Under the pieces are notes generated by a model. The model searched no databases. It was given only the letters and a program-made list of their open reading frames with translations, and was not told the origin of the DNA. A DNA stretch of 64,000 bases from Xestospongia bergquistia (taxonomy: Eukaryota; Porifera; Demospongiae; Haplosclerida; Petrosiidae). Shown here in pieces: positions 30,115-63,136 of the stretch. The translations under genes and the position numbers were made by a program. The first letter of the stretch is position 1. Every line of letters starts with the position of its first letter. Location of the stretch: positions 312,501-376,500 of the forward strand of contig OZ014413.1 in the NCBI GenBank assembly GCA_963965975.1, in the 5' to 3' direction.

Positions 30115-33100
30115 CTAGGATGACGTATGTGGGTCCTTGCTATAAAAAGTTCTCGATCCTAGTAACCAATGTTGACTATTGTTGTTATTATTATTGGTGT
30201 TAGCGCCATATTGATATGGAGGCCCGCCCACCATTGATGGGTCTGCCATGCCCATATTTGGATCCATAGGTGGACGATATTGAGTCATCGATATTGGTCT
30301 CATTTGTTGAGGATTCATTTGATTAACTATTGATTGCTGGGGTACTCCCATATTAATCTGACGCATAATAGGTTGGGACATCATGGTTGGTTGTTGATAT
30401 TGTTGCCGTGGTCTCATATACTGTGGTGGAGGTTGTCCCCCAGGCATACTATATTGTTGATATTGTCCGGGCATTGGTCGCTGCATCATATGAGGTGGTA
30501 AGTGAGGATGTTGTGGGGGACCTGTGGTCATTGGGCCTGTCGAGTGACCATGGAACATTGGTACTTGTGCTGGCATTCTGTGACTAGGCATCATGGTACT
30601 ATGATATTGTGGATGACCAGCGTACTGGTTAGGTGCCATCGGAGACAATGTATTCATCATTGGGCCTCCTTGCGGCATCACCCCCGGCATCATATTAGTA
30701 CGAGGCATTGGACGAGGTTGCATAGGACTTTGATAAATGGGTCCACGGGGAACACCCATAAACTCTTGTTGTATTTGAAGGGCTTCTTGTTCACGTTGCT
30801 GGTGTTTCAACATATTAATAACACGTGGTAAATAGTCGGGATGTCTTTGTAAATATTCCTTAGCTTTAAACTTATCCTGAGGTTGTAATGATGTAAGAGC
30901 ATTGATAAGTGTCTGAGTTGTTTCTGTCATGTTCTGCTGAGCCTGCTGGATTGGTGTTGGTTGAACTACAACATTAGGGGCTCCACTTTCAGCAGGTTTT
31001 GTCATGGGTGTTTGAGGTGTTACAGGAACAAATGGAGTAGCTGGGTTAGGCAAGGAGGCGGGGCTAGGTGGGACGGTGGTTGTGTTAACTGGTGTATGAG
31101 GATTAGGGGAACCTGCAGCTACCATTTTTCCGGGAGTAGGGACTGCGGGTACATGAGGAGTAGCAGGTGAGGGAGCCGATTTAGGAGCTTCTTCATTTGT
31201 AGGTGGTGAAGGATTTGATTGGTTCATCTTGTGTATTCTCCGTTGAGCTAGTTGGAAACTCCTGTCCTGTTCTCGCTGACGTCTCTGCCTCATTTTTTGC
31301 TTCAATGTGGCACATATTGGCACAGGACATTTTGCCTCTTTACACTCCTGGGCGTGGCTAGCACACATTCGGATAAAGAAATTGCAAGCACTGCATTTTC
31401 CAGATGCTCTCATTTTACAATCTCTGGCATGACGTAGCAGTTGTTTCATCTTGATACAGAGTGGTTTAGAACAAGTGTGATCTCGACATTGACAGGCATG
31501 GATAAGAAACTCATTTCGTCTTTTAAAGAGCTGTGCTCGATTAGCTATTGTATTCTGTGATGTTTTTTCATCATCTCCCATATTAAAGCCAAGTTTTTCC
31601 ATAGGATGGTCATGACCAAATGTAGCATAACATGTTTGACATAAATCATAATCCTACAGGAAAAATGGATACATGAGTGTTAGTAATAGATGAATAAATG
31701 GAAGTATGGATGCATAATAGATACTTGTATAGATACATAGTTAAATAAATGGACAAATAGATATATTAAATGGATTAATAAAAATATTAGATCAGATCAG
31801 ATGGTAGTGCATATACTTACATCACACTCTTTACAATGCCATCTAAATTCAACATCAGTATGGCAATGATTACACGTGTAGACAAATCGATCTCCTTGGT
31901 TATGTAACTCGTATAACATAGCCATTGTAGAGTATTTAGCACGACGGAGTGATGAGAACTCCCAGTGTTTCTCACGTGCTAAGTTCAAGAATGCATCTCT
32001 ACCATCCATGAGTTCACATGTTACTAGAGAATCAGGGTCTCCTGTCACTGGAAGTGGTGAGGTTGCTTGAGGAGGTTGTAAGAACACAACAAAGAAGACC
32101 TAAAAAGGAATTAGATTTTTGTAAGTATGTTCATCTATCAATCTATATGTCTATTTATCCATTCATCTGTCCATGTATCCATTACCTCTTTATGTTTGTC
32201 CATTGTTTGATATATTTTTTGAGTCAAATCATCTCCACTAATTAGAGGGTTAACCTTTTTACTACTTTTAGTTCTTGTAGCTGCTTTTTTACTTCCTTTC
32301 TTATTTTTAGTTGTACTTCGCTTACCAGCTTTCTTTGATCCAACACGTTGTTGCTGTGAAAGGGTTAAAAATGATTTCATATTTTAAAACAGGTCTCTCT
32401 CTCTCTCCCTCTCCCTCTCCCTCTCCCTCTCTCTTCCTCCTTACATCACCAGAAGCTTCACAAGCCTTTCTTTCCTCTTCTTCCTGATCCAATTCTTTTA
32501 TTGTCTCCTCGATAACATTGGGCCAAAAATCTCCTTCAAAATACGGTATCTCTGTTACCATGGTGATCTCCTCTTCAGTACAATACTGAAAAATGTCTTG
32601 AAATTGGTGGATTACATTATGTTGTGCTGCTCGTTCTAACATATTACGATACCATTCTACAAGACGTTTTGGTTTAGGTATTTTTTGCTCAATTGGATGA
32701 CAATGGAAAATATAGTCATCTCCTTCACCAGGTGGACACGCCCATATATGAGCAGTCTGGTAACTAAGGGTGTGGCAAATAATAATAATAATAATAACAA
32801 TACAAACAGTTGCATAACTCTAATTAATTAACATCACCATGGTGATACAGTATGAATAAATAATTAGGTACTTACCCATTTTGTTTGCAAAATTCTAGGT
32901 AGCCAATGAGAATTTCATGATATACTAAAGTACGATATTGTTTGGGACGAAAAAAGTGAACACTGTCCAGGTAAGAGATATAGACACGCCTACAAAAACC
33001 AACAAAATTAAACATTATTCTAATGAATATTAATAAATTTACCTTGTGTTAGGGGCGGGGCAATCAGAGCCATATTCCTGTACATGCATACCAAAGAAAC

Positions 33101-36100
33101 AAACATCTACTCCATCAATTTCCTCAAAGACAAAGAGAGCTTTAGTTCTATATGGAAACTGACTAGGAAAACCAGAAAACCTCTCCACCATACCTGTAAT
33201 GTTAAATAAAAGGGTGTGGCTTTGTGGGTGTGGTCTTACCTAGTCTGGTATCAAGGAATTTGTTTGAGGAAGAAACTACTCTGATGGTAACCTGTGCTCC
33301 ATCAGCATTGACTTGATGATGTAGGAAATTATTTACACGTTCTTCTAAGAAACTACCAAGTCTAGTAGGTGGTAAGCCTATAGAGTATATAATAAAATAT
33401 TGACTATAATTTTTCCAATTTGTATTCATTTACAATTTCTATATATCCATGTTGTCATCTATCCATCCATTCAACCATTCTATTTATTTTATGCAGCCAT
33501 TTTATAATCCATCCGTCCATTTGTTTCTCTGTCCATCCATTCTTTAATCCTTACGTTTGGCTACAAATCTGTTATCTCTCCTTTTACTTCCTCTTAAGCA
33601 ACCATCACATTGAAATCCTTCTGGCCATATTGCTTCATGATACAACACACATATTTTATGAAATTGTCGCTTACAATGAATACACTCAACAAACCTAATT
33701 AAAAAAAGATCATGTGATAATCACGTATTATATGTAGTAGACACGTGACATGTCATGTGACTTACGGTTCAACTCCGACAGAGTCATTTTTCATTTCCTT
33801 AAAAGCTCCTTTGGGTATTTGGTTCATGTTGGCTCCTTCATCGTTAACGGCAACACATTCTCCCGGAATTTCTTGGAAACATTTTGTACAATAGACATAA
33901 CGACTAAAGGGAGATATGAAAGACTGAAACCTAATCTTAGACTCAGACCTAATCTTAGTCTTAGACCTAATCTTAGACTCAGACCTAATCCAAGTCTCAA
34001 TCTCAAACTAGCATATTCTTAGAAATATAACTGTACATTGATTCTCAAGACTTAGCTTGAGAATCCCCTCTAATATCAGCTAGTCTCATACTCATACTGG
34101 GTAAGACAGATCTCAGTCTCACATTAGTCTCAGACTCATACCAGTAGGATCATATAAATTTAGTCTCAGACTCATACTAGTACAGGTTTCAGTCTTACTT
34201 GCTCTGGTATCCATAATAAGGGGAGTCACGTGGAATAGGACACAGTTTACCATAACAATATAACACTTGAGGATGGAACACGTGCTATAAAAATAAGAGA
34301 TAATTAATTTATTAACATTAATTATTACAGGGTCATTACAAAGTAAAAGTGAAAAGTAATATAATGTAATTGAAGGGGTGTGGTCTATCACCTTTTGTCC
34401 ACAACAGTATCCAAGCCTTTTCATTGCGTCATCAATATATTCATTGAAGACTTCCGCTAACTTTGAGCAAAACTTGTAGACTCGTGATGTCTTCTTATTA
34501 TAAGTCCAAGCATTGTCAAACATTAACATCATGTCATTACAGAACTAGTGTAGGAGAACAAAGGAGTAAATTGTTTATAATTACTACTAATTGTTGTTTA
34601 TTTTCAAATATGTAAAAGTATGTTGTTCTAATTAATGCACACCTCCCAAGGTGTAGTGTATTCTCCCAATTTTAATTTGTTGTCAATTATTGAAAGATCA
34701 ATAGGGTTTTTGATAATATCAAAGTAGTCCTATAATAGACAAATAGATTTGTAAAATGGATGAATAAAAGAAGATAACAAATATATTGTAATATAATATG
34801 AATGGATGGTCATGAGTATATGTATGGACACACATACTGTATAAATAGACAAATAACATTTAAAATGGACACACACTTACAGGAATTCCTAGTGCATATG
34901 GATCTACAGGTTTCTGGAATGGATAAGCTTCAGGATCTTGATACCATACAGCATTAAATACTGGACGGAATGTCATCTCTATCTCCTCTGCTGTAAAGAC
35001 CTATTTTAATATAAAATATATTATGAGAGGGCTCCTATTATTAATGTATATTAATTAAGTGCTCCTGTTAGTAATTAATTACCTTAATTAAAGTAGGGTC
35101 TGGTTTAACTTTGTGACTGGGCTTTGATTGAGAGGGTTCTTCAGAAATTGGCAAAGGTGACGATATAGCAGGTGGGGCCTCAGTAATACTCTCCCTTCGA
35201 ACAGAGGCATGCTTAATACTTGAAACTACAGGGAAAAATATGAATTATCACATGACAATTGTATTATATCACAGGATAATCTCATTATATCACACAAAAA
35301 TCACATGGTAACTGTAACACATCACAGAATAATCACATGACAACAATATTATATCACATGACAATATTTTACCTGATTGAGGCGATTGTGACACACTAAC
35401 TGAAGGATTATGAGAGGACATCTCCATCGGCTCTTGTTTGATATCATAAACTGTAGGAACAGAATCCATTTTAGTATCGGACTCAGTTTTAATGTCAGCT
35501 GGAAGAGCAGCTGGGGGTGGTTGTCCTGATAGAGTAGTGTTCTCTGATAACATCTTAGAAGCCAAGGAGTCAGAAGGAAGGTTATTGGTGGTCATTGAAG
35601 GCGAAAAGGAGGAACTTGGTAAGGATGGGACAGGGGCAGTTGACATGAGCATTTTGAGGACTTCACTTTTTTTATTTTCTCCATTATCAGAGTGTGGTGT
35701 GGGTGGGAATTGTAAAGAAGGGTTGGACGAGAGGGAGTCATCCAATGGAGATACTAAAGGCACTAAAACAATACATTACTAAATTAATTAGAGTTAATTA
35801 AAGGAGCTTACTATTAGGTTGTGAGGATGGAGTGGGTTGAGGAGTGTTGAGGAGGTGACCACTCCCATCACCTACACCATTAACGAGGGGACCTATTGAA
35901 ATATGAATAATTCATGAGATGATCACAATTACATCATCAGGTGTCCATAAATATATCATTTATTTGTCCATCCGTCTTTTTATCTATCCATTTCTCTCAC
36001 CATTTCGTCTGTTCTTACGTTTCTCGTCTAGTTCTTTCCTGATCCGATAAATTCTCTCGGCTAATTTCTGATAATAGTCCTCCTATAATCACAATATTAA

Positions 36101-39100
36101 TAATAATATATATATGATTATGGGGTCATACCCTGCTGCTAGCTGTCTCAAACATGGATCTCTCTACCCGTACAGCATATTGGTAAAGACTAGCGACTCG
36201 ATTATCAACAGGTACTTGACTTTCAGGTACAGGATAGATAGCTTCAACCCTATACAATATATCATATAAGTAATGACTCTATTGTGTGTCCATTAATCCA
36301 TCCATCCATCATTCTATTTGTCCATCAGCTTACAGTTTTTTAATGAGATGATTTCGTAGATCAGAGTTGACCTCTGAATGCCAGTTTCTAGATACTATTC
36401 CACTAAACAGATAGAATATTAATAATAAAATATTATTATAATTAACGATAGGGGCTTACCCTTGAGGAGGGGGAGGAGGATATGGTTGAGGTTGTCTAAG
36501 AGGTACCCCGCCCCCTCCCATCATAGGATGTTGTTGATACATTGGTCTATTGCTGTAATCCATTCCTATAAAACAAATGGATAGATAATATATTGTACTA
36601 TGGATGGACAGTTTAACATACAAATGCATGATAAAAAATGGATACACAATACAGATTAAATAGATGCATAATTAATACAATGGATCCATGACAGGTACAA
36701 TATTATTAAAATGGATGCCTAATCAATTAAATGGATGAATAAAATACAAAATGGATATATACTTGTTACAATGGACATACCGGACTTTCCATTAGACACA
36801 AGATGGCCGGGACCAGTTGAATATTGAGAACTAGGGCCCATCATACTGGCGTGGACAGCACCTGCTGGAGACGGAGGTATCCCGACTCCTCCATTAGGAT
36901 CAAGAGGTCCCCCTACCATGGGTACACGTGTTGACGTCTTAAGAGGCAGACAAACTGGACATTCAGGTTGTGTACAGTTCTTCCAATGATAGATAATTTG
37001 ACGTGATGAGGCACAATGTGCAACTAAAGGGTTAAAATATAATAATTATCCCTGTCATTATAGAGTTAAATATTCAGTCTTTGCATTTATGTTTACAGGG
37101 TTAATTTAAGGGCTTGCTTTTGCAAAAAAGGTAAACTCCAGCAATTATTGTATATTATTAACACCTAGTCTAGTGCAACATTAAGGGTAAGCCCCTGTGT
37201 TAATTGAACATACTCTTTCTATTACAATGGGTGAACTCCCATTATAATTATTACTAATAACTTACAATCACAGTCTCGTCCAGCCTGACAACCTGTCATG
37301 TGATTTAAAACATTCTTCATAGTACGACAGTGAGGTAAAGCACAAGGTCTAAAGGTACCATGAAGTTGCTGTTCTTTCTCTCTCTGTTGACAGCGATGAG
37401 CATGAAGGAGCAGTACAAGTTGTTGCTGAATGAGTTTTCTTTTCTCTGGGTCATTACTGGCTGATGATGCTTGTGGCATGTTGGTAACTGGTTGTGGAGG
37501 TCCACCTCCTGGAGGACCTGATAACTGAGGCTAAAAGGTGAGGAAGTAAAGGGGAGAGTTACTGAATGATACTAAAGTTGCTAAGATAAGTATTGATATT
37601 CACTAGTCTGGAAGATAGTTGTATCTTAGGTCACTATAATGTATTGTTCTATAGTTTATATGATATAGTAATGGTAGCTTAACTACTAATACATGTACAT
37701 TTTAGGTCAAAGTCTTCTCCTGACAAAACAATCTCTTTTATTTCCATGCACTTATACAATAAAGTTATGATACCTGTTGTTGTTGGGGGGATTGTTCTGC
37801 TGATAGTCCCACAGATCCTGGACCTGGCATAGGAGGTCTATTAACAGAAGACATTTGAGGCATGGTGCCAGGATTAGGTGGGTGTGGCATCATGTTGGCT
37901 GGGTTAGCGTGGACCTGCTGCGGCTGAACTACAGAGAATCTTGGATCTACTGGATGTTGGTTCATTAAGTGAGAGGGTGGGGTCTGGTGAGGTACGTGTG
38001 GGTTCATGTGAGGTGTAGCAAATCGGGGTACCATTCTTGGAGTTCCCATGCCAACATTAGGATTATAAGGACGTTGAGAACCTTGAGGATATCCAGGCAA
38101 ACGGCCATCCATTTGTCCAGCCATCATGCCTGGAGGTGTGGTCATATGGTTGCCATGGTTATACATGGTACTGTTTGTCATATGATGATAGGGTGTTCCA
38201 ATACTGGCTGAGGGTGCCATTAGGGACGAGGACGAGGGAACAGAGATAGAGTGAGTGGGAGAGGCAGAAACCGAGGGTAAAGGAGGGGTAGGATCCCCTG
38301 AGGTACTAATAACAGCATTTGGAGGTAGCGTGGAGTTTCCAAGATGAGTGTTTAGTTGATTAGAAATCCCAATGCTGGGAGGTGGAGTCACAGAATTACT
38401 TATATTATTCAAAGAGGGCGTGGCTAGATCACCAGGATTTCCTAGCTGTCCCATATTGACAGGTTGGGGATCAATGTTATTAGAAGGAATTTGAGCTCCG
38501 AGAAATGCACTACTGTTCATATCATTTATGTCATTTAGTTCATCTGGAAGGTCTAGGAGCTGTACTAACATTTCTGTAGATAAATGGATGAATAGATGTT
38601 TAAATGGATACATGAATAAATGAAATGGATAAATACAAAGAAAAAGGAATAAACACATTAAATTGTTAATAGTATTATTTAAATTTCAAAAAAATTAACC
38701 TAAATTTTTAAAATACTTAAAAATTTTTAAAGGTAACTTTTAATATAATGCAATGGCTTTTCTGTTAAACATTATTACATAGCACAGAAGCATATAAGCT
38801 GTACTTGAAACTAACTATCAAATATAACAATATAGAAACTATATATAATATTATTTGATTATTGCTAAAGCAAGCAAAAATTATTTTCAATAATAAATTG
38901 AGGAAGCTGTAGCAGTCTCGATATTATTGCTGACAAAGATCAGATATTAAATTCTATTCCTATTATTTATCTCAATTCTAAAGAGTTTAAGTTAAAGAGC
39001 AAATAGAAATGACTTGTAATATCGCGTACAAACAAATGCTCTTCGCTAATATACACAGACAACAATGGCCGTGTGTAGCCAGCCCGGCCCACATCGAGGA

Positions 39101-39199
39101 TATCTAAAACCTGCTTTACTTACCACTTTCGCTCATTCTAGCTCTTTTTGATGGTGGTACACCAGGAGCACTGGTGTCTGCCGGGGTCTGCTCTGCCAT
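30115..39199 (-). CDS. EP300/CREBBP: p300/CBP lysine acetyltransferase, transcriptional coactivator
   Basis: A full-length family member on the minus strand, starting [20 protein letters not shown] at 39199. Domains in order: [11 protein letters not shown] receptor-interaction-like region (38573); TAZ1 (37530-36930; [35 protein letters not shown]); KIX (36400-36020; [31 protein letters not shown]); bromodomain (35000-34385; [34 protein letters not shown]); RING/PHD (34290-33545); HAT (33530-32100) with [19 protein letters not shown] and [10 protein letters not shown], which keep the Trp and Tyr equivalent to human W1436 and Y1467; ZZ and TAZ2 (31920-31220); NCBD-like helix region ([17 protein letters not shown]) in a long Pro/Gln/Met-rich tail. 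All key modules are present, so an active nuclear enzyme is expected. Only this one of the three p300-derived loci has the bromodomain-HAT core. Confidence 0.95.
32395..32441. repeat. CTCTCC microsatellite in p300 intron
   Basis: A run of CTCTCCCTCTCC lies beside the exon encoding the HAT C-terminal acidic segment. It is a simple repeat only. Confidence 0.85.
33920..34200. repeat. Minisatellite of CTTAGACTCAGACCTAAT-type units in p300 intron
   Basis: A degenerate run of about 18-bp units (TTAGACTCAGACCTAATC and CAGTCTCA variants) sits between two RING/PHD exons. It produces Leu/Arg-rich spurious frames on both strands. Confidence 0.75.
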
Positions 39200-42999: not shown

Positions 43000-45900
43000 T
43001 TAGTTTGTATATGACATAATTTCATCAGCTATGCCATTTCGGTTAAATTTCACTCTTAAAATATCCACAAATTTAGTCAAAATACCAGCATCATACTTGA
43101 CACGATCCCTTATATCATCAAGAATAGTTTCAAGACGGTCCTCATTTGTATCTCTACTGGATTTGTCTTTTACTCTCTTGTAAACATCCTCAGAGATGAT
43201 TTCTTTTGCAAAGAGCTTCCTTGCCAGAACAAAAGGATCAATAGTTGATTCAACAATAATGTCAGTACATTGAACTAAAGCTCTTACAGCCTTATCAGAG
43301 TTCAGAATAACATTATCTATAGTAATAAAATATTTTAGAGTATAAAATATTATGACAAGGGGAGGCTAATTAGAAGTTATCAATGAATATGATCAACATT
43401 AATCTTATGAAATTACATACCTGTATTGTCAGAAGTCACAGCAACATACTGTTCAGGCTCTAAAGACAATACGTCAGGATCTAATAAACAACATTTAGTT
43501 TACAGTCACATACAAAGTTATAATATACATAGGATACATACCTACAATGCTTGGTAGGTTATGTGTAGTACCTGACTATACAAAAGAGTTCTTTATTGTT
43601 TTATATGTGTGTATATCAAAGGCACTGCCTGGACAACATTGGTCATAATTGTACAGTGAAATTGATATTAAATGGGATGTGTCATCTGGTAGATCACAGG
43701 TACTTGTTGTGCCAATAAATCAAACAAAAATTAAAGCAGTCAAGATGAAGTCTCATATATTGATAAAGCACTTCAACTTGTATTCAATCAACTACTTGAC
43801 TATAGATACCTCTAATGCTTCTTCTGTAATACATGCAGATAGTACTTTAATTTATTACATACAATAGTCAAAAATTTAAGGTATATTTAATATTAAGAAT
43901 TTAGTGAACCATTTTGAAAATATATAGTATAACTAAGTGAAACAAAAATATATTAATTTAGATGCTACCACTATATTACAAGACACTATTTTGGGTTGTA
44001 TAAAATAACATAATATGTACATACCTTTTGGTAAAGTCACAATCTTATTAGATTTAGTACAACGAGCTTCTAGGCTTCTAGATCTTAAAATAGCAGCATG
44101 ACAAGGTTGTTGAGAACAAGGACAAAAAGAACCCTTTTTGGGTTGAATTTCACTCTTGAATTGGCGTTTCATAATAGTATCTGATAAAATAGAGTCAATT
44201 TGTTTCTCGAGTCTTGCTTTGTCCTCAGGACATTTAAAGTAAACTTCATAACAATCATTTGATTCTACAAAAACTACTTTCTCATTTATATCAAAGTGAT
44301 TCAATGCAATCACATTAGCATACATTGGTGATGTAGTATCAATTGACCAAACTGAATTATCGAAAAAAAAATAGGGGTTATCCAAGAGTTGACTCATATC
44401 AGAGTCATCTACAGTAACTGTTAATGTTGTTGATAAGAGGTTGACAATCATAGCACAAAAAAGACCAAGTGGAGCTCCATTCTCAAAGTAGTAGAGCAGA
44501 GAGGACTGGTTGAAAGGACTAAATTGTGATGGATCTGTTAGTGGTAATAATGCAGGCATAAAGAACTGATCTGCAGATATTTTTGTTGCTGTAAGGAGAT
44601 GTTCAAATATTTCTAGAAGCTGTGAACTAAAATCAGGAAATGATCTAGATATATGTAAACTTTTCTCTAATTTAATAAAAACGTCTTTTGAAATAATCCC
44701 CTTTTCTGCAGCAATACTACAATGATGTGATCCTGGACCAATTGAAACATTATTTCGTATTTTACAGACTAGTACAACCAGTTCACTGACAATTTCAATC
44801 AGTCTGTTGGGGAAAACAAACACTAAATCAGATACTCCTTCATAGTACAAGATAGTATTGAGGAGATGAAAAAATTTTAGAGCACTTTGCACTTCTTCTT
44901 CTGTGAACCCTAATCCTGTACCAATAGCTGTGCACTCACCTAATGAGAGTACTCCACAACCTTTGTTGGCATTTTTACACAACAAAATTTCAAATGCATA
45001 CCAACTTAATGGAATATCTACTTCAAAAGCTTGTTCTCTTAATTCAGCACGAATCTCCTTAATTACTGGATCATCAAAGATTTTACGAGAAGCCTTACGA
45101 CCATCAACTTCATGCAAAATCTTTTTACTTGTTGCATCACGATAGAACAGGTTGCTCTCTACAGAATGAAATATCTGGGCAAGTTTTTCTTCTTTCTCTT
45201 CAATAGTTTCCACTTTTTCTCTGTTCTGTTGTTGTTTACAATCATAATCATCTCGATGAGTAGCAACAGTAATAAGGGCTACTTTTTCTGGTATCTTGAT
45301 TATATTTGAAAGGTCACTAGTGCCCGAAACTAATTGTTGTTGATGACCACTTGAAGTAACCATAAGTGTAAGACGCCTTAGAAGTGTTTCAACAGATGGA
45401 GAATAGTCACTTACACAATAACGTCCGTCTTCACATTGTAAGTCAGTAGATGATTGATTAGAAAGATCTTCAGCTAGATTAGTAACTAACATAAGAACTG
45501 ATACACATGGTACAAATGCTTGTACTAACTGTTGAAATTGTATTTGACCTCCACAATCAATGAAATAGAGCCATTCTTTATGACATGTTAACTTGTTCAC
45601 CTTAATATAAGCCTTCATTACAATATCACATAATTCCCTCGTTACATTGTCTCTATGTGTGTCATGCTTAAAAGAAGACTGATGAACTGAAACATTAGAA
45701 CTAGTAAATTGACTAAATGAAGATTTAGAAAGCACAGATAAAGGTATTGAAACAATGAGACTTGTTACAGCAGTAGATTGGTAGTTATTACTATGTTGTA
45801 GCACATCTTGTAGCTGATCTTTAATTTCACTAACAAATTTTTTAACCATAGTATCATGATCTACTAATTCCCAATGATACTCATCACTTTGCTGACCAAA

Positions 45901-48296
45901 ACGACTCATTGAAAATTCTCCAACAGCAATTTGAGGAGACTCAATACAACCTGTACTGATGTTACTTGTGTAGGGTTTTGAGAGAATTAGACATTTTACT
46001 GACGTTTTACCAGCTCTAGCTGGACCTTGTATAACAGCTTTAGTAATTCTAGTTTTAATAGATCCACTTTTTTTAAGACCCTTACGAAGATATTGATCTA
46101 ATAAAACCATCCTCCTGTCTTGTTCTACAAGAGGAATACAATGTCCATAAATTCATCATCATTCATATCATTTATTCATTCATCCGTCCTTTTATCTATC
46201 CATTATTCTCACCATTTTGCCTGTTCTTCCGTCTCTCAGCCAGTAATTTCCTGATCTGATAAATTCTCTCTTCTAATTTCTGATAATAGTCCTCCTATAA
46301 TTACAATATTAATAATAATATATATATGATTATGGGGTCATACTCTGCTATTAGCTGTCTCAAACATGGATCTCTCTACACGTACAGCAAATTGGTAAAG
46401 ACTAGCGACTTGATTATCAACAGGTACTTGACTTTCAAGTATTGGATAGATAGCTTCAACCCTATACAATATGTCATATAAGTAATGACTCTATTATATA
46501 TCCATTAATAAATCCATCCATCATTCTATCTGTCATTAGCTTACAACTTTTTAATGAGATGATTTCGTAGATCAGAGTTGACCTCAGAACGCCAATTTAC
46601 ACCACTAGGTGGTGAAGGTTTTGATTGATTTACTTTCCATATTCTCCGTTGATCTAGTTGGAAACTCCTGTCCTGTTCTCGCTGATGTCTCTGCCTCATT
46701 TTTTGCTTCAATGTAGCACATATTGGCACAGGCACATTTTGCCTCTTGGCACATTTTGCCTCTTCACACTCCTTGTTGTGGCTAGCACACATTCTGATAA
46801 AAAAATTGTGAGCACTGCATTTTCCAGATGCTCTCATTTTACAATCTCTGGCATGATGAAGCAGTTGTTTCATCTTGATACAGAGTGGCTTAGAACAAGT
46901 GTGATCTTGACATTGACAGGCATGGATTAGGAACTCATTTCGTCTTTTAAAGAGCTGTGCTCGATTAGCTATTGTATTCTGTGATGTTTTTTCATCATCT
47001 CCCATATTAAAACCAAGTTTCTTTCTTAGATGGTCAACTGTAGCATGACATGTTTGACATAAACCATAATCCTGTAAGATAAATGGATACATGAGTATTA
47101 GTAATAGATGAATAGATAAACAGATAGATAGATGGGTAGTAAAATCATAATTTATAGATTAAAAATATTAAAAATAGCACTGAGACAAAAAGGTCTATTT
47201 TTTGGTTTGGTGCAATGAATTACTCAAAACATTCTTTGTTGTATTTAAAATCTTTCCAATGAAACGAAAAATTACACACACATTGAGGTCTAGTTTGGTT
47301 CAAAGTTATTCTGTTTATGTTACACATTAGGACAAATGTTTGATAAGTAAGTAAAAACTGTACCATGATGTATAATTGACTTCTATAACACACACAAGGT
47401 TAATAAGTGTTCAAGGAGATTAAAAACTCATAAGCTAAATGTATTTGCCAAGATTGCTAAGATATTTGTAAACCTGAAATCAAATGATTTCATTGGTCAG
47501 TTTGGTACAAACATGGTAAAACTATTACTTAGAACAAAGTCCAATCATTGCTGATTTGGAAACTTTTGTGCATGTAAAGCTTGGTATGGAGCCTATACAC
47601 AACAACAAATAAAAAGGCTTATCCTTTGGACTGAAACTCTACATCAATAAAACTATAGTAGCTTTAAAATAATTCTATTATGGCAAGTAAATAAAAAGCA
47701 TGTCAACAAAGCTTTGCAGCAAAGAAAATGTAGGTAAAGAAATAAAGCATGGAAGGTTTAGTCCTTCCGCTTTTGGACCTTTTTTAGTCTTAGGAATAAT
47801 AGCTTGTAGAGAAGAGTACTAGCACTACTTATATCATACTCATTTCAATGTCACTGTAACTCCACAACATGACAATGATTACAAATGTACCTCTTTAAAA
47901 TCATCAGGAACAGAGAGTACACTCTTTTCTTTATCAGGTGAAAAGATAGTAGAAGCCGAAACTGATTCTGTAGCATTTGATTTACATGATGAATTCGATT
48001 GTCTCATTTTGTGTTTTCTCTTTGTTGATGAGAACTGGGGGTCACTCAATGGAGATCCTAACGGCAGTATTATGAATTAATTAGAGTTATTAAAGGGGCT
48101 TACTGTACCTTTGATCATGTGATGTTGATGTGGTCGGTCATAATCCATGCCTACAGTAACAAAATGAACAGATATTATAGAAGGTATACCAAACAGATAC
48201 ATTAAACCTACTTTTCTCGCCACATTCACTCATTCTGGGCCTTTTTGATGGTGGCACACCAACTTCACTGGTGTCTATAGAAGTCAGCTCCGCCAT
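43000..48296 (-). CDS. Chimeric p300-derived (TAZ2-KIX) + Roc-COR GTPase + death-fold-like protein
   Basis: Nine exons: 48212-48296, 48109-48150, 47891-48057, 46545-47071, 46344-46461, 46213-46294, 44025-46124, 43421-43480, 43000-43316. They sum to 3498 nt (1165 codons plus stop) with every phase matching. The start ([20 protein letters not shown]) is the p300 N-terminus. Exon 4 gives the end of ZZ and a TAZ2 ([17 protein letters not shown]), fused inside the exon to KIX ([13 protein letters not shown]). Exons 5-6 finish KIX (DYYQKLEERIYQIRKLL). Exon 7 is Roc-COR: P-loop GPARAGKTS, switch [16 protein letters not shown] in the THxD position typical of Roc, then COR-like [14 protein letters not shown]. 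Exons 8-9 add a helical tail ([23 protein letters not shown]), possibly death-fold. Bromodomain and HAT are absent, so it cannot be an acetyltransferase. Location and partners are unknown. Confidence 0.8.
47072..47890. other. Long intron of the TAZ2-KIX-Roc chimera
   Basis: At 819 bp it is much longer than its neighbours. It joins the diverged exon ending DDFKE to the TAZ2 exon in phase 0. No transposon ends or open frames were found in it. It marks where p300 exons between the two were lost or replaced (inference). Confidence 0.5.
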
Positions 48297-48396
48297 CAAA
48301 ATTATTCAACGAAGAATACGCCCAAAATCCACCAATTTAATGCACGGAAGTATCCGGTCCGGATGTCCGCAAGTATGTTGCTATTTTGCACACTTG
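48297..48396. promoter_or_regulatory. Divergent promoter, chimera / AMDHD2-like (copy 2)
   Basis: This is a shortened version (100 bp) of the p300 promoter block, with CGGAAGT at 48345-48351 followed by ATCCGG and GGATGTCCGCAAGTATG. Copies 1 and 3 share it. Confidence 0.5.
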
Positions 48397-49436
48397 ATGC
48401 CACCCACAGCAACACCCAACACTGCAAATGAGTTCCCCATCAAGTAAGGGAGTCAAGGTTCATAATAATGGTGGGTAAAACTGTAAGCTAAGTGAAAATG
48501 ATTTGTGGTAAACGTGTAAAAACAATAGAAAGCCATGGTCTTTATTTGGGGGTGTACTGTGAGCATATGTCATCAATATTAGTGTTATTGTTAATGATAA
48601 TAATAGGGTCATATCTTATTAGAATGTTAAAACTAAATAAAACATTTATATGTATTTAAAATTTAATACTATTGTTTAGATTTGTCAGGTAATGTGATAT
48701 GTTATCGTAACTGTCAAGTCTTAAGGGGCGGGGTTTTAAAACTAGGAGACATATGGGTTCGAGATGGTCAGGTGATCAATCCTGTGGTGTTGTTTTATCA
48801 AGAGCGTCTGAAGTGACAATAGATTGATTAACATCATTGTAGGTGCGGCTGGGCCTACAACAATGTCAGGAGTTGATAGGTAGACACGCCCATTAATGGT
48901 ATAATGGATGAATGGACACACAGAGAATAGATAGATGAATGATTGCATTTAATAGATGAATTGTAAATAGATATTAATAAATATTTACTGACATCTCTTA
49001 TGTCTTGTTTATAGTTCCACTAAAAGACAAAAGAAAGTATTAAAAGATTGTATCACTGTATAAGTTCATATTGTTATATTTTAAGCTACATCATCACTAG
49101 AATCTTTTGAAATGGTAAGTACATTCAAATGTACTTACCATAATATAACTTGTTATAATATCGATATTATCAGTGATGAACAACCAACAATGTTAGGTAT
49201 GAAAAATGGCATACATTGAAGGATGGATAGATGAATGGACAGATAGACAGTATGTGGACACATAACTACATGTACATTTCATAATAGACAGTATGTACAT
49301 GTACATTTCCTTATTAGGTATACAATGTGGAACATTTAATAATAAAGAGAAGAAAGGAGCTACAATGAAGAGAACAAGCTATTCTAGATTTATAGATAAC
49401 ATACTTGTTATCTCTCCTTGGTCCCAGTCAATCATG
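48397..49436 (+). pseudogene. AMDHD2: AMDHD2-like pseudogene, copy 2
   Basis: In this copy the first segment is intact (NCQVLRGGVLKLGDIWVRDG, then QVINPVVLFYQERL). It then runs into TGA because the codons for HQPEVIIECDELIAS-PGFIDLQ are deleted or replaced. Later fragments match copy 1. The lesion differs from copy 1 (frameshift) and copy 3 (nonsense), so the copies decayed separately. Confidence 0.75.
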
Positions 49437-49896
49437 ATATAATTTAGTTATATTGTTTAATGTAAATTTTTAGTTCATTTTAAAGCTAACAAACTTCTTT
49501 TGAAGGCAACTGATTTTAAAATGGCCTGGAAAACTTTTCCACATTTGGTTACTGTTCTTTGTCTGCTCAGTTGGATGATGAGAGAATGACAGGAATACGA
49601 TGAACTATACTGACTTCAACTTTAGCTGTATTATAGTCTTGTTAATAAGTAGAGATATTATAATTTTACATTAGTAGTAATGATGTTTTATAACAAATTG
49701 TAAAGATCAGTTGATACAATTTATTCTAGTTGTTCAATGAACACTATTATTGTAATGTTATCATTAAATTGTGTGTATTTATATATATTTATTATTTTTA
49801 TATACTTTCTATGAATAAAAATAAAAGTATTATGCATAGTAATTACTATAGTATAACACAGAACGTCAGATATAAAAAATAATTAAGTATAAGGTT

Positions 49897-49908
49897 TGCG
49901 CATGCGCA
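49897..49908. promoter_or_regulatory. Palindromic NRF1-type site (duplicate copy)
   Basis: TGCGCATGCGCA again, in the same surrounding block as 41156-41167. The flanks differ at several positions while the 12-bp core is identical. Confidence 0.45.
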
Positions 49909-50345
49909 GATATCCTTGATACTTCCTGTTGTAGCTAGTTCCACCCCTGTACCACTATTTGGAAAGTAACCTAATACAAAATTAGCAATAAAAAAAGAAA
50001 ATGTATTCGTGGGCAGTTTCCTGAGTCATAGATTGTAAATAAAGTCACGTGATATACTTCATTTCTTCCATGGACCACAACACAACCGGCACATCATAGT
50101 GGATCAGTTCCTGAAACCTTCCAGTATTTGTGTATTATATTGTAGATTCCTCCAAACCTCAACTATTTCTGACAAACATTATGATCAAGTAAACACTTAT
50201 TTTATGATAACAACTAATACACTAGTAATAGTACTAAGAGAGTACAGGATATATATATATATACACATATATTTTATATATATGTATATATTCAGAATAA
50301 CAGAAAATACAACTAGTTTAATAAATCTATTCCAGCAATATATTA
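49909..50345. other. Intergenic region 3' of the ZU5/Death gene
   Basis: The sequence is shared with copy 1 as far as GTGGATCAGTTCCTGAAA (50098), then diverges. A TATATA-rich stretch lies near 50250-50290. No gene was found. Confidence 0.5.
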
Positions 50346-54033: not shown

Positions 54034-54081
54034 CTTGTGGTGACAGCTGTGTCATAGAAACTTAATTTGTATAGCTACTAC

Positions 54082-55862: not shown

Positions 55863-58800
55863 TTATTCAACAATAATGTCAGTACATTGAATTAGAGCTC
55901 TTTTAACCAAATCTGAAATATTTGCATTGTATAAATTATTATAATAAGGGAAGATAATTAGGAGTTATCAGTGAACATGATCAAAATTAAATTTATAATG
56001 ACATTACATACCTGTAATATCAGGAGTCACAGCAACAATATGTTGAGGTTCTAAAGACAATCTCTCAGAATCTACAAAATTTCAAAGTACAGTCACAAAT
56101 AAAAGTTATAACATACACTCCATGCATACCTACAACTATTAGTAGTTTATATGTAGTATCTGACTATATAGAATAATTCTTTATTGTTCAATGTGAGAAT
56201 ATCAAAGGCAATGCTGCACATCATTGGCTATAATTAAAATTGAGGGGAGGTGTGGTCTGGCATCAATGTGATACTTGTCTCATGCTTTTTTGTAATGCAT
56301 GTAAAAAGTATTTTAATCAATTACATATAATCAGGTGGGACTTATTACATTTCACTCAAGATTAAGGACTTCAAAATTTAAGAGATATTTAATATTAAGG
56401 ATTTAGTGAACCATTTTAAATTATTAGTATAACTAAGTAAAATCAAAATGCACTTAGATGCTACCACTGTGTTATGAGACATTATTTTGGGTTGTATAAA
56501 ATTACACAATATGTACATACCTTTTGGTGAAGTCACAACCTTATTAGATATAGTACAGCGCATCATACAAGTTCCTCTAGGTTTTAAAATAGCAGCATGA
56601 CGAGGTTGTTGAGAACAAGGACAGAAAGTGGCTTTTTTGGGTTGAATTTCAGTCTTAAATTGACGTTTCATAATAGTGTTTAATAAAATAGAGTCAATTT
56701 CTTTCTCGAGTCTTGCTTTGTCCTCAGGACATTTAAAGTAAACTTCATAACAATCATTTGATTCTACAAAAACTACTTTCTCATTTATATCAAAGTGATT
56801 CAATGTGATCACATTAGCATACATTGGTGATGTAGTATCAATTGACCAAACTGAATTATCAAAAAAAAAGTAGGGGTTATCAAAGAGTTGACTCATATCA
56901 AGGTCGTCTACATTGACTGTTGTCAATAAAAGGTTGACTATCATAGCACAAAAAAGACCAAGTGGAGCTCCATTCTCAAAGTAGTAGAGCAGAGAGGACT
57001 GGTTGAATGAACTAAATTGTGATGGATCTGTTAGTGGTAATAATGCAGGCATAAAGAACTGGTCTTCAGACATTTTTGTTGCAATAAGGAGATGTTCAAA
57101 TATTTCCAGAAGCTGTGAGCTAAAATCAGGGAATGATCTAGATATATGTAAACTTTTCTCTAATTTAGTAAAAACAGACTTTGAAATAATCCCCTTTTTT
57201 GCGGCAATACTACAATGATGTGATCCTGGACCAATTGGAACATTATTTCGTATTTTACAGACCAGTACAACCAGTTCACTGACAATTTCAATCAGTCTGT
57301 TGGGAAAAACGAACACTAAATCAGATACTCCTTCATAATACAAGATAGTATTGAGGAGATGAAAAAATTTCAGACCACTTTGCACTTCTTCTTCTGTGAA
57401 CCCTAATCCTGTACCAATAGCCATGCACTCACCTAATGAGAGTACTCCACAACCTTTGCTGGCTTTTTTACACAACAAAATTTCAAATGCATACCAACTT
57501 AATGGAATATCTACTTCAAAAGCTTTTTTTCTTAATTCAGTACGAATCTGCTTAATTACTGGATCATCAAAGATTTTACGAGAAGCATTACGACCATCAA
57601 CTTCATGCAAAATGTTTTTACAAAATGTTGCATCACGATAGAACAGGTTGCTCTCTACAGAATGAAATATCTGGGCAAGTTTTTCTTCTTTCTCTTCAAT
57701 AGTTTCCACTTTTTCTCTGTTCTGTTGTTTACAATCATAATCATCTCGATGAGTAGCAACAGTAATAAGGGCTACTTTTTCTGGTATCTTGATTATATTT
57801 GAAAGGCCACTAGTAACTAATTGTTGTTGATGACCACTTGAAGTAACCATAAGTGTGAGACGCCTTAGAAGTGTTTCAACAGATGGAGAATAGTCACTTA
57901 CACAATAACATCCGTCTTCACATTGTAAGTCAGTAGATGATTGATTAGAAAGATCTTCAGCTAGATTAGTAACTAACATAAGAACTGATGCACATGGTAC
58001 AAATGCTTGTACTAACTGTTGAAATTGTATTTGACCTCCACAATCAATGAAATAGAGCCATTCTTTATGATTTGTTAACTTCACATTACCATAAGCCATT
58101 TTTATGATATCTTGTAATTCCGTTGTTACATTGTCTCCAGGTACGTCATCCTTAATTGAAGACTGATGATGTAAAGACGAAACTGGTACTGAAACATTAG
58201 AATCAGTAATTTGACTAGAAACAGTACTTTGAGTGGGTTTGCTAAATTGTTGTAGTCTTTCTCTGGCATCATCATTTTGTTTTATAGCTAGTATCACATC
58301 CTTAAGTTCTATTCCAAATTTTTTAACCATGGTTTCATGATCTACTAATTCCCAATGATACTCATCACTTTGCTGACCATAACGACTCATTGAAAATTCT
58401 CCAACAGCAATTTGAGGAGACTCAATACAACCTGTACTGATGTTACTTGTGTATGGTTTTGAGAGAATCAGACATTTTACTGATGTTTTACCAGCTCTAG
58501 CTGGACCTTGTATAACAGCTTTAGTAATTCTAGTTTTTATAGATCCACTTTTTTGAAAGGCTTGATGAAGATGATGTTGATCTAAAGAAGGCAGACAAAA
58601 TATATATATAGTGAACTACATAGTAAATGTAGAAATAATATTGATACTTATAGTACATAGTAATAAGCTAAGTTTAAAGGAATGTCAGAATGGTGACAAA
58701 AGCGTTACAAACAATTTGACCAGAGTTCCAACGGAATTGAAAACACTAAAAAGCCAACACAGTCTGTTATCTAACTACAGATCAGTAGCAAAGAGATTTC

Positions 58801-61800
58801 TGCTTTCTAAAGCTTTCTAAATACATCATTACTACCAAACATATAACTGTTTGTTCACACTTATGTACACTGTAAAAATTAAATTGTTATTCTAACAATT
58901 ACTTTGTAGTTTACATCAGTGGGTTACTATGGAATATAGAATTTTTGTGAATTACTCATTATGTAATTTGTTGGCATGTAAAAGTACAACATACCAAAAA
59001 ATTACACAATGAGTAATTCACAAAAATTCTATATATCATAGTAATCCACCAATGTAAACTACAAAGTAATTGTTAAAATAACAATTTATTTTTTACAGTG
59101 TATAGCTATGATACTGTGCTCTAAGCTTGAAAGTTAACTCTGAATCATTTTTGAGAAATCAATGAGACAGACATACCCACCAACACCTACACACAAAAAT
59201 TGGCAAAGCAATTGATCATAAGAATCAACAAGATCTGAGTATCTGAGTGATGATAATGTGATTGATATAGTAACCACATGAAAATGATAGGGAGCATAAA
59301 GTCATATACTGATATTTGATGTGTCAATAGTTAGAGCAAAACAATAAAGTCAGATCTGTTGTATTGATGCTTGATTTGATAAATTTATTAGAAACCCTTA
59401 GCTTGGTGTATAAAAACCTGTATCTGAGGTAATTGTTTCATGATCATTAGTGTAGCATATGGTGAACAATAGATATCAATACTGGTACAATCAGTATCCT
59501 GAAATATGTATTTTTAAAGTGCTTTACAGAGTGACTCATTACATAGCTGTCTGTGGCACTGTGTTTAAGATGATGACAGGAAAAGGTAAGGTCACAGAAA
59601 ATTGCTCAAGATCAAAGCTTTAAGAATACTAATTTTGCTCATGATTCTAACTTGATTGCTTAATTGCATCTCAAAGAGTAATCTTTTATTGTATTAGCAT
59701 TGCTAGTGTCACATAAACAACTTGCTATGTTACTGTTGCTATATAACTTAGTATCAGTCTCCATGGTATTTATAAAGAAACCTTGTGCTTTTGGCCCTTG
59801 GTTTATAAATGCCATAGAGACCTTAACTTTTTATATAACCTATATATATAAAGAAATGGAAACAAATGAATTACAAACAAAAATAAACAAAACTAAATCA
59901 AAGAATGAGTAAAAAATTCAATAATACAATGACTTACTGAATTCTAATGGTGATGATGTCCTAAGGGGCATACATACTGGACATTCTGGTTGTGTGCAGT
60001 TCTTCCAGTGATAGATAATTTGACGTGATGAGGCACAATGTGCAACTAAAGAGTAAAGTATAATAATAAAGAGATGATACACATCATTATATAGAAACAA
60101 TAATTAGTATTTGAATTTGTGATTAAAGGGTTAAATTTAGAGATAGAGCCTTGTTCATAATTAAAATTGAACAAGTAATGTATAAGATCCTGTAATAACA
60201 AACCTATTCAATGTACATAATGGGTAAACTCCCATTATAACTATTACTAATAACTTACAATCACAGTCTCGTCCAGCCTGACAACCAGTCATGTGATTTA
60301 AAACATTTTTCATAGTACGACAGTGAGGTATAGCACAAGGTCTAAAGGTACCATGAAGTTGCTGTTCTTTCTCTATCTGTTGACAGCGATGAGCATGAAG
60401 GAGCAGTACAAGTTGTTGCTGAATGAGTTTTCTTTTTTCTGGACCACTATAAACTGATGATGCTTGTGGCATAGTGGTAACTGGTTGTGGAGGACCACCT
60501 CCTGGAGGACCTGATAACTGAGGCTAAAAGGAAAAAGTGAAAGAGATAGTTTTCTAGAGTTTAGTAATGACAATAGCTAAGTCATAATGATAAGTACTGA
60601 CATTTACTAGTCTAGATGGTAGCTATCCTAGGTCACTGTGGTAAGTACTGATGTTCACTAGTCTAGAGCTTACTAATGGTAGCTATCCTAGGTCACTGTG
60701 GTAAGTACTGATGTTCACTAGTCTAGAGATTACTAATGGTAGCTATCCTAGGTCATTGTGGTAAGTACTAATGTTCACTAGTCTAGAGATTACTAATGGC
60801 AGCCATCCTAGGTCACTGTGGCAAGTACTGATGTTTGGTATTCTTACACTATACTAATGTTCACTATCTTAGTTTCTGATAATTATACTAACAAATACTT
60901 GTAGGTCAAAGTACAATGCATGCAGGCCTAGCAATCACAAATAATAGGCATGTTCATATTCAATTCAGTTCTAATAGGTTTATATCTATAAACTGACTTA
61001 ATTCAACTTTCAACAATGTGCATTGTGTGTTAATGATGTTGATACACATTCCAACTAAATTGAATCCACTTTATAGGAATGGTCTGAACATATACAGTAA
61101 TATGATTAATATCTTGTATAAATTCAACTTAACAAAACACACTGTCCATGCACTCATAAAATAAAGTTACGATACCTGTTGTTGTTCTGCTGGCAATCCC
61201 ACAGTTCCTGGACTCAGTATATAAAATAAAAATAATAAAATAAATTGAAGTTTATTTACAATGCATTATCAAACAAGGCAAGATCACTTAAGTTATTTGA
61301 TTGAAATTGTCTTAATCACAATTACAACATTTACATGAAATGTTGAACTTTTCACACAACAACTGTACTATATCACATGATTAGCAATATGACAACTGCT
61401 CACATCATACAACAATCACATGACAACTATATTATATCATATGACAATCTAATACCTGACTGAAGTGATTGTGGCACACTAGCAGAGGGATTATGAGAGG
61501 GTGTCTCCATGAGCTCCTCATCATGTGTAAGCACTAGAACAAGATATTAATGTATTAATTAGAGTTAATTAAAGGAGCTTACTATTAGGTTGTGAAGATG
61601 GAGTGGGTTGAGGAGTGTTGAGGAGATGACCACTCCCATCACCTACACTATTAACAAGGGGACCTAATGAAATACGAATAATTCATGAGATGGTCATTAA
61701 TTAAGTCATCAGGCTGTCCATAATTTTATTCATTTATTTGTCTACTTTTATCTATCCATTTCTCTTACCATTTTGTCTGTTCTTGTCTAGTTCTTTCCTG

Positions 61801-63136
61801 TTAGTGTTAGCGCCATATTGATATGGAGGCCCGCCCACCATTGATGGGTCTGTCATGCCCATATTTGGATCCATAGGTGGACGATATTGAGTCATTGATA
61901 TTGGTCTCATTTGTTGAGGATTCATTTGATTAACCATTGATTGTTGGGGTACTCCCATAATCTGACGCATAATAGGTTGGGACATCATGGTTGGTTGTTG
62001 ATACTGTTGCCGTGGTCTCATATACTGTGGTGGAGGTTGTCTCCCAGGCATACTATATTGTTGATATTGTCCGGGCATTGGTCGCTGCATCATATGTGGT
62101 GGTAAGTGAGGATGTTGTGGGGAACCTGTGGTCATTGGGCCTGCCGAGTGACCATGGAACATTGGTACTTGTGCAGGCATTCTGTGACTAGACATCATGG
62201 TACTATGATACTGTGGATGACCAGCATACTGGTTAGGTGTCATTGGAGACAATGTATTCATCATTGAGCCTCCTTGCGGTATCACCCCCAGCATCATATT
62301 AGTACGAGGCATTGGACGAGGTTGCATAGGATTTTGATAAATGGGCACACGGGGAACACCCATAAACTCTTGTTGTATTTGAAAGGCTTCTTGGTCACGC
62401 TGCTGGAGTTTCAAGGTATTTATAACACGTGGTAAATAGTCGGGATGTCTTTGTAAATATTCCTTAGCTTTAAACCTATCCTGAGGTTGTAGTGATGTAA
62501 GAGCATTGATAAGTGTCTGAGTTGTTTCTGTCACATTCTGCTGAACCTGCTGGATTGGTGTTGGTTGAACTACAACATTAGGGGCTCCACTTTCAGCAGG
62601 TTTTGTCATGGGTGTTTGAGGTGTTACTGGAATGAATGGAGTAGCTGGGTTAGGCAAGGAGGCAGGGCTAGGTGGGATGGTGGTTGTATTAACTGGTGTA
62701 TGAGGATTAGGGGAACCTGCTGCTACCATTTTTCCAGGAGTAGGGACTGCGGGTACATGAGGAGTAGCAGGTGAGGGAGTTGATGTAGGAACTTTTTTGT
62801 TTGTAGGTGATGGATTTGATTGACTCATCTTGTCTTTTCTCTTCTGAGAAGGTAATGATGAGTTTGATAAGAACTGAGGGTCACTCAATGGAGATCCTAA
62901 AGGCAATATTAATGAATTAATTAGAGGTATTAAAGGGACTTACTGTACCTCTGATCATGTGATGTTGATGTGGTTGGTCATAATCCATGCCTACAGGAAC
63001 AAAATGGACAGATATTATAGAAGGTATACCAAACAGATACATTAAACCTACTTTTCTCGCCATATTCACTCATTCTGGGCCTTTTTGATTGTGGCACACC
63101 AACTTCACTGGTGTCTACAGAACTCAGCTCCGCCAT
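55863..63136 (-). CDS. Chimeric p300-derived (NCBD-TAZ1) + Roc-COR GTPase
   Basis: Eleven exons: 63052-63136, 62949-62990, 61769-62896, 61583-61663, 61456-61533, 61176-61207, 60259-60523, 59938-60045, 56521-58581, 56012-56071, 55863-55912. They sum to 3990 nt (1329 codons plus stop) in one frame. The start ([20 protein letters not shown]) is p300-like. Exon 3 carries the p300 C-terminal region ([20 protein letters not shown]) fused at its end to the KIX-end sequence ([10 protein letters not shown]). Exons 4-6 are p300 linkers. Exons 7-8 form TAZ1 with its zinc ligands kept ([24 protein letters not shown]). Exon 9 is Roc-COR ([19 protein letters not shown]). The helical tail of the sister gene is cut by a stop (IIVE then TAA). 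TAZ1 now follows NCBD, the reverse of p300. Exon 6 depends on the acceptor TCCAG|GA; otherwise translation could start at 60472. Confidence 0.78.
58868..59100. mobile_element. MITE with full-length inverted arms and TA target duplication
   Basis: CACTGTAAAAA at 58868 is mirrored by TTTTTACAGTG ending at 59100, flanked on both sides by TA (58866-58867, 59101-59102). The two halves are complementary almost throughout (TTTGTAGTTTACAT with ATGTAAACTACAAA; AGAATTTTTGTGAATTACTCAT with its complement). It lies in the 1.36-kb intron between the TAZ1 and Roc exons of the chimera. TA duplication suggests a Tc1/mariner-type source. Confidence 0.88.
59103..59937. other. Remainder of the intron joining p300-derived and Roc exons
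   Basis: No exon or gene is supported. This intron spans the junction where p300 sequence ends and Roc sequence begins. The donor lies in a diverged stretch (SSPLEF) that is not in p300. Confidence 0.5.
60601..60840. repeat. 60-bp minisatellite, four units, in chimera intron
   Basis: The unit, with core GGTAGCTATCCTAGGTCACT and a TTCACTAGTCTAGAG junction, repeats exactly every 60 bp four times, with a few substitutions. The corresponding p300 intron (near 37600-37650) has one diverged unit (CACTAGTCTGGAAGATAG, TTAGGTCACTATAATG), so the array expanded after duplication. Confidence 0.9.

What the first reader, a model, noticed from the sequence alone, without database searches (positions are those of the whole stretch)
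43000..48296. p300 TAZ2-KIX modules spliced in frame onto a Roc-COR GTPase and a helical death-fold-like tail
Nine exons with matching phases give an open 1165-codon frame whose first six exons derive from p300 and whose next exon is Roc-COR ([19 protein letters not shown]). I know of no described protein joining p300 KIX/TAZ2 with a Roc GTPase. The junction lies between the KIX-end exon (..KNRQN, phase 1) and the Roc exon (EQDRRMVLLDQ), using the original p300 donor.
Basis: partly seen in the sequence, partly recalled or inferred. Interest (0 to 1): 0.93.

Follow-up and report, generated by a model that had tools for sequence, protein, structure and literature searches.

The report
p300 docking domains fused to Roc-COR-CARD
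In a sponge-like genome, pieces of the gene for the master co-activator p300 have been shuffled and joined in frame to a cell-death-type signalling protein, in more than one version, which looks like bait built into an immune receptor.

Summary

It is not isolated. An apparently intact p300 lies next door. A second chimera (63136-56.5 kb) joins other p300 pieces (C-terminal Q-rich region, TAZ1) to Roc-COR, also in frame. A third copy just outside the window is frame-shifted. ORFs from other, unnamed assemblies carry the same TAZ2-KIX junction (P0122, P0126) or other p300 mosaics (P0130-P0132); some list contigs of the same length as Roc-COR ORFs. Some related Roc-COR exons follow SH2-kinase (5) or Ras-like (10) exons, of 43 considered; only 2 of 5 SH2-kinase joins look fully open.

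Best reading: a Roc-COR-CARD death/immune switch with p300 docking surfaces as bait or sensor. The gene structure is well supported; expression and function are inferred, and selection on TAZ2/KIX is not demonstrable between copies.

The parts
48212..48296 (-). Exon 1: p300-like start [27 protein letters not shown]; contains a basic PPSKRPRM stretch (nuclear signal by recall of CBP/p300)
   Evidence: 76.7% DNA identity to the p300 start at 39201-39099
48109..48150 (-). Exon 2 (MDYDRPHQHHMIKG), resembles the p300 exon before KIX ([18 protein letters not shown], from about 36560)
   Evidence: resemblance by eye only
47891..48057 (-). Exon 3 (GSPLSDPQF...KRKHKM...); a similar start is seen in copies 2 and 3 and in P0130-P0132
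46545..47071 (-). Exon 4: end of ZZ, TAZ2 (with a 6-aa insertion and a C-to-H change against p300) and the start of KIX, fused in one exon
   Evidence: same junction in P0122 and P0126
46344..46461 (-). Exon 5: KIX middle
46213..46294 (-). Exon 6: KIX end, with the p300 donor ATG|GTGAGA (phase 1)
44025..46124 (-). Exon 7: Roc-COR ([19 protein letters not shown]), acceptor TTGTAG (phase 1)
43421..43480 (-). Exon 8: linker (DPDVLSLEPEQYVAVTSDNT)
43000..43316 (-). Exon 9: predicted CARD (six helices) and stop
48341..50116 (-). Upstream region, similar to the p300 upstream region (41369-39628, 81.9%)
30115..39199 (-). Resident p300 gene in normal order (TAZ1 37.2 kb, KIX 36.4-36.0 kb, bromodomain and HAT exons by eye, TAZ2 31.6 kb, Q-rich end): source of the modules. 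Apparently intact; no full gene model was built
61769..63136 (-). Second chimera, exons 1-3: p300-like start (63136-63052), 62990-62949, and 62896-61769 fusing exon 3 to the p300 C-terminal Q-rich region (62841-61801, 94.3%) and the KIX end with its donor
59938..61663 (-). Second chimera, middle exons: 61663-61583, 61533-61456, 61207-61176 (acceptor corrected by eye), then TAZ1 in 60523-60259 and 60045-59938
   Evidence: (zf-TAZ E 1.5e-5)
56521..58581 (-). Second chimera, Roc-COR exon (acceptor CTTTAG, phase 1); its CARD remnant near 56.07-55.84 kb has stops

Best explanation
A chimeric gene, placed behind a copy of the p300 upstream region, encoding p300 TAZ2-KIX docking modules (no HAT, no bromodomain) in front of a Roc-COR GTPase and a CARD. 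It belongs to a large Roc-COR family. Proposed working: the TAZ2/KIX surfaces act as bait for proteins that target p300 (or as a sensor of activation domains). Binding changes the GTP-dependent state of the Roc-COR part. The CARD then recruits CARD partners and starts a death or immune response. Shown here: gene structure in the DNA, domain identities by sequence or predicted fold, in-frame joining, two differently built p300 chimeras in the window, and the same exon junction in other assemblies. Inferred: expression, bait function, GTP switching, CARD output.
For: In-frame nine-exon gene. The KIX-to-Roc gap is only 88 nt, the p300 donor is kept, and either Roc acceptor is in frame. Second chimera with other modules (Q-rich end, TAZ1), also in frame to the end of Roc-COR. 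TAZ2-KIX single-exon junction in 2 of 7 hits, both from other assemblies. Other p300 mosaics in 3 of 10 hits. P0131 and Roc-COR P0002 both list a 9,666-base contig; P0126, P0130 and Roc-COR P0005 all list 757,004. CARD fold, Roc-COR fold. Roc exon constrained between copies 1 and 3 (omega 0.28, bootstrap 0.19-0.42). Related Roc exons with SH2 (5) or Ras-family (10) hits just upstream among 43 considered. TAZ2 is a known viral target: adenovirus E1A binds CBP TAZ2 (PMC7698142, passages read).
Against: No transcript or protein. Between copies 1 and 3 TAZ2+KIX shows no detectable constraint (omega 0.88, 0.38-3.5); the nearby intron 3 is 98.5% identical, so the exons differ more than the intron. 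The Roc exon of copy 2 is less constrained (omega 0.54-0.58 against copies 1 and 3). Copy 3 has a frameshift in TAZ2 and an early stop in its CARD; copy 2 has a broken CARD. In copy 1 a TAZ2 cysteine (a zinc ligand by recall) is His, and 6 residues are inserted in the last zinc loop. Of 5 SH2-kinase plus Roc pairs only 2 look open throughout, and they lie in one tandem cluster. No fused protein was seen among the 120 of 150 hits listed.
Confidence: 0.5

Rival explanations
1. By-product of an unstable tandem array: unequal recombination around p300 produces chimeric gene copies that are mostly decaying, and copy 1 is one whose frame happens to be open.
For: Copy 3 frame-shifted, copy 2 CARD broken; omega of TAZ2+KIX near 1 between copies 1 and 3; in TAZ2 copies 1 and 3 share a one-base difference from p300, and copy 1 also carries a 17-nt tandem repeat.
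Against: Two chimeras with different p300 pieces are open through their junctions up to the end of Roc-COR; the TAZ2-KIX junction is open in two ORFs of other assemblies; the Roc exon is constrained between copies 1 and 3.
Confidence: 0.27
2. Internal regulator rather than pathogen sensor: the protein competes with p300 for host activators (p53-, CREB-, Myb-like) and couples their level to CARD signalling or damps transcription.
For: KIX groove residues are largely kept in the alignment (groove positions recalled); p300-like upstream copy and basic N-terminal stretches; no HAT in the Pfam scan.
Against: The p300 pieces differ between copies and assemblies, which a fixed regulator would not need; some related Roc exons follow unrelated modules (SH2-kinase, Ras).
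Confidence: 0.17
3. Two genes: a Roc-COR-CARD protein started at the ATG inside exon 7 (..DRRMVLLDQ), with p300-derived exons as promoter and 5' UTR or a separate short protein.
For: An in-frame ATG exists at the start of exon 7; the database ORF P0001 begins there, which only reflects ORF calling. Copy 3, frame-shifted upstream, could only work this way.
Against: 88-nt gap; phase match at both possible acceptors; the corresponding start is missing in P0003 (..EQNRWLASLDQ) and in the second chimera.
Confidence: 0.06

Closest known systems
p300/CBP co-activators
   Same: N-terminal start, TAZ2 and KIX are copied from the p300 gene of the same window
   Different: TAZ2 before KIX in one exon; the Pfam scan of copy 1 shows no bromodomain or HAT; followed by Roc-COR and CARD
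Roco (Roc-COR) proteins such as LRRK1/2 and bacterial Roco
   Same: Roc motifs and Roc-COR fold
   Different: No LRR or kinase found in copy 1; N-terminal p300 modules and C-terminal CARD. Brown algal ROCOs, proposed as candidate immune receptors with exon shuffling, have LRR-ROC-COR as the only arrangement reported (PMC11378527, passages read)
CARD-bearing sensors such as Apaf-1 and NLRs
   Same: Predicted CARD fold; nucleotide switch plus CARD resembles Apaf-1 in concept
   Different: Roc-COR instead of NB-ARC/NACHT (recalled); docking modules instead of LRR or WD repeats
Plant NLRs with integrated decoys (NLR-ID)
   Same: A switch-plus-output core joined to copies of host proteins suspected to be effector targets (PMC5067614, abstract and outline read)
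   Different: Different core proteins, animal genome, no pathogen ligand known
Sponge TRADD-N/death-fold architectures (Amphimedon)
   Same: Sponge death-fold proteins with many lineage-specific architectures, some with kinase or SH2 domains (PMC8195603, section 10 and passages read)
   Different: TRADD-N based; no Roc-COR or p300 module named in the section read

Membership tests
Roco (Roc-COR) proteins | Roc GTPase motifs followed by COR | tested here: met
   [14 protein letters not shown] and THRDD present; fold matches LRRK1, Roco, LRRK2 with E down to 7.7e-12; Pfam COR-A below its cut-off for this copy, above it for many other places in the genome
Roco (Roc-COR) proteins | GTP binding and hydrolysis, dimerisation | not testable with these tools
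   needs biochemistry
p300/CBP co-activator | KIX and TAZ domains | tested here: met
p300/CBP co-activator | bromodomain and HAT | tested here: not met
   absent from the Pfam scan (E up to 1) of the 1165-aa protein
CARD proteins | six-helix CARD fold | tested here: met
CARD proteins | binds CARD partners / caspases | not testable with these tools
   needs biochemistry
Integrated-decoy receptors (by analogy) | module derived from a host hub protein, fused to a receptor-like core | tested here: met
   p300 origin by DNA, fusion by frame; that the core is a receptor is inferred
Integrated-decoy receptors (by analogy) | different hub modules on related cores | tested here: inconclusive
   SH2 5 and Ras-family 10 of 43 Roc exons; frame, donor and Roc exon all open in 2 of 5 SH2-kinase loci; Ras-like frames not followed
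Integrated-decoy receptors (by analogy) | binds a pathogen effector and triggers a response | not testable with these tools
   no ligand or assay

The most novel reading that the evidence does not exclude
An animal counterpart of plant integrated-decoy receptors: a Roc-COR-CARD death switch onto which copies of hub proteins that pathogens attack (p300 docking domains, Src-like SH2-kinase, Ras-like GTPases) have been fused repeatedly, with the p300 bait rebuilt from the resident p300 gene in each lineage.
Probability: 0.28. Interest if true: 0.95.

Novelty: new variant of a known kind. Interest (0 to 1): 0.85.

Why it matters
Word searches of the held library for Roc-COR with KIX, for sponge with Roc-COR and KIX, and for CREB-binding protein with sponge, tandem duplication and gene fusion returned no paper on such a protein. 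If the bait reading is right, animals without adaptive immunity use the integrated-decoy logic known from plants, on a different receptor core. The captured hubs would then point to what sponge pathogens attack. It also offers a natural system in which one hub gene is repeatedly copied, rearranged and refitted to a death switch.

Tried and rejected
Considered and rejected: the TAZ domain as TAZ1 (the PDB match is p300 TAZ2). The C3:2.557 Mb TAZ/KIX locus as another chimera: it shows TAZ1 then KIX in normal order; no Roc-COR, and no HAT, was seen in the 6.6 kb held. A candidate exon near 43823 was dropped because it runs into a stop in the needed phase (read by eye). PDB sequence search with the Roc exon gave nothing; the fold search did. 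Pfam gave no family for the CARD exon. An alpha-actinin-like reading of the ORF upstream of the C7:1.507 Mb Roc exon was a guess that Pfam did not support. Literature searches with no hit or only unrelated listings; some searches gave the papers cited and others known only from the listing. Foldseek rows of low probability (viral, kinase and other) were ignored.

Held: L036 and L038 are open on both sides with a GTAAG donor in phase 1; L031 is open on both sides but reads GTCAGT at the donor; the kinase frame of L037 is interrupted before the linker; the Roc exon of L048 is interrupted.

Counts: the 43 Roc exons were typed from the 84 rows (fragments merged, rows weaker than about 1e-100 that were not pieces of a listed exon left out). 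23 of 81 SH2 rows and 20 of the Ras rows (162 matches, not all listed) were typed; the other listed rows were compared by eye. The tree used 28 of 30 loci (two dropped for length). The Roc structure used 49 rows, 48 of them chosen from the 120 listed hits. The CARD alignment used 19 rows from 20 fetched loci; the copy-3 CARD with a stop was left out. TAZ2 codons around the length difference were left out of the dN/dS counts.
Full report
Check of the observation. The nine-exon model on the minus strand was rebuilt base by base. All eight introns are GT-AG, every phase matches, and the product is 1165 aa without internal stops. Pfam finds KIX (E 3e-19), a TAZ zinc finger (E 1.5e-6) and only a sub-threshold COR hit. 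PDB sequence matches assign the TAZ to p300 TAZ2 and the KIX to CBP/p300 KIX. At DNA level the TAZ2 part is 87.9% identical to the TAZ2 exon of the p300 gene in the same window. The KIX part, with its donor and the start of the next intron, is 90.3% identical to p300.

Surroundings. An apparently intact p300 lies at 39199-30115 in normal order (no full gene model built). The upstream region of the chimera resembles the p300 upstream region (81.9% over 1.86 kb). A second chimera starts at 63136: p300-like start, an exon joining exon 3 to the p300 C-terminal Q-rich region (94.3% identical to the resident p300) and to the KIX end, further p300 exons, a TAZ1, then Roc-COR. With the acceptor ..GTCCAG|GAACTG for its sixth exon (my correction by eye of the 38-nt piece printed, same frame) the frame is open through Roc-COR. 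Its CARD remnant has stops. A third copy, in L016 at 7567-2396 (C3:383.6-378.4 kb), has the architecture of the first but a frameshift in TAZ2 and an early stop in the CARD.

Other assemblies. A search with the TAZ2-KIX exon gave 7 proteins among 16 candidates: the window's own, the copy-3 ORF, two with the same TAZ2-KIX junction (P0122 at 82%, P0126 at 62%), and three TAZ2 ORFs without KIX. A search with the odd exon of the second chimera gave 10 proteins among 2118 candidates, one of them the window's own. P0130, P0131 and P0132 join the same exon-3 start to p300 Q-rich sequence and then to the exon before KIX, an order not seen in the three copies here. Over 196 shared columns P0130 is 86% identical to the p300 ORF P0129 and 76% to the window's chimera; the window's chimera is 91% identical to the window's p300; the two p300 sequences are 87% identical to each other; P0131 is 79% identical to both the window's p300 and its chimera. 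This fits copying from the resident p300 in each lineage, or conversion, but that P0129 and P0130 come from one genome is not shown. Equal contig lengths tie P0131 to Roc-COR P0002 (9,666), P0126 and P0130 to Roc-COR P0005 (757,004), and P0124 to Roc-COR P0004 (583,368); that equal length means the same contig is inferred. None of these assemblies is named, so they may be of the same or of other species. The only named relative seen is Amphimedon p300 (P0062), so 'sponge' is an inference.

Related Roc-COR genes. Among 43 near relatives of the Roc exon (the three p300-type copies included), 5 have an SH2 hit 1.2-1.3 kb upstream and 10 a Ras-family hit within 0.6 kb, on the same strand; chance expectation is below 0.1 each if independent, which tandem copies are not. 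One such upstream ORF is a full SH2 plus tyrosine kinase (kinase E 1.6e-94). Its linker ends ..NNQFTEI-G in phase 1 and the Roc acceptor is phase 1. L036 and L038 are open on both sides with this donor. L031 is open on both sides but reads GTCAGT at the donor. In L037 the kinase frame is interrupted before the linker, and in L048 the Roc exon is interrupted. DFG reads NFG in L031 and L048. Ras-like frames were not followed through. In the Roc tree (28 rows) the three p300-type exons form one group with full support, and the SH2-kinase rows lie among Ras rows.

Selection. Copy 1 against p300: omega 0.31 (0.18-0.52) for TAZ2+KIX. Copies 1 and 3: 0.88 (0.38-3.5) for TAZ2+KIX and 0.28 (0.19-0.42) for Roc-COR, 0.50 for the CARD and 0.13 on few changes for exon 3. 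Copy 2 against copies 1 and 3: 0.54 and 0.58 for Roc-COR. Intron 3 between copies 1 and 3 is 98.5% identical, less diverged than the coding parts, so either mosaic ancestry or fast change of the docking modules is at work; the data do not separate these. Copies 1 and 3 share a one-base length difference from p300 in TAZ2. Copy 1 carries in addition a 17-nt repeat, so its frame is open with six extra residues.

Interpretation. I take it as well supported that a p300-Roc-COR-CARD gene exists in the sequence and that such chimeras arose more than once in different builds. The function is inferred. E1A binding to CBP TAZ2 is documented (PMC7698142, passages). Plant receptors carrying copies of suspected effector targets are documented (PMC5067614, abstract and outline). 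ROCO genes have been proposed as immune receptors in brown algae (PMC11378527, passages). Sponge death-fold proteins with many architectures are documented (PMC8195603, section 10 and passages). On this basis a bait or sensor on a CARD switch is the most economical reading of docking modules without enzymatic p300 domains, changing from copy to copy. Decaying by-products of an unstable array remain a serious rival. Word searches of the held library for Roc-COR with KIX, or sponge with Roc-COR and KIX, returned no paper.

Noticed in passing
L016 7995-9831 (+), window 40009-40233 (+), about 48742-48948: ORFs resembling N-acetylglucosamine-6-phosphate deacetylase (name recalled from motifs; one piece gave no Pfam family) lie divergent to the p300-type starts; first-exon-like remnants sit upstream of other p300-type copies, so the duplicated unit may include a two-way promoter.
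   Followed up: partly
C3:2555866-2562500 (L012, L069): A second, divergent p300-like locus with TAZ1 and KIX in normal order; no HAT seen in the 6.6 kb held.
   Followed up: partly
C6:1.53-1.69 Mb (L025, L026, L028-L038, L041, L048): Tandem cluster of Roc-COR exons preceded by Ras-like or Src-like SH2-kinase exons; two of five kinases read NFG instead of DFG.
   Followed up: partly
window 50346-54850 (-): Gene fragments with a Death domain (53103-53738, Pfam E 5.8e-7) and a region that looked ZU5-like by eye without Pfam support, between the two chimeras.
   Followed up: partly
exon 4 of copy 1 (47071-46545) and its counterpart in L016: In TAZ2 of copy 1 a 17-nt tandem repeat on top of a one-base difference shared with copy 3 leaves copy 1 open and copy 3 shifted.
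   Followed up: yes
window 47890-47073 against L016: Intron 3 is 98.5% identical between copies 1 and 3 while the coding exons after it are more diverged.
   Followed up: partly
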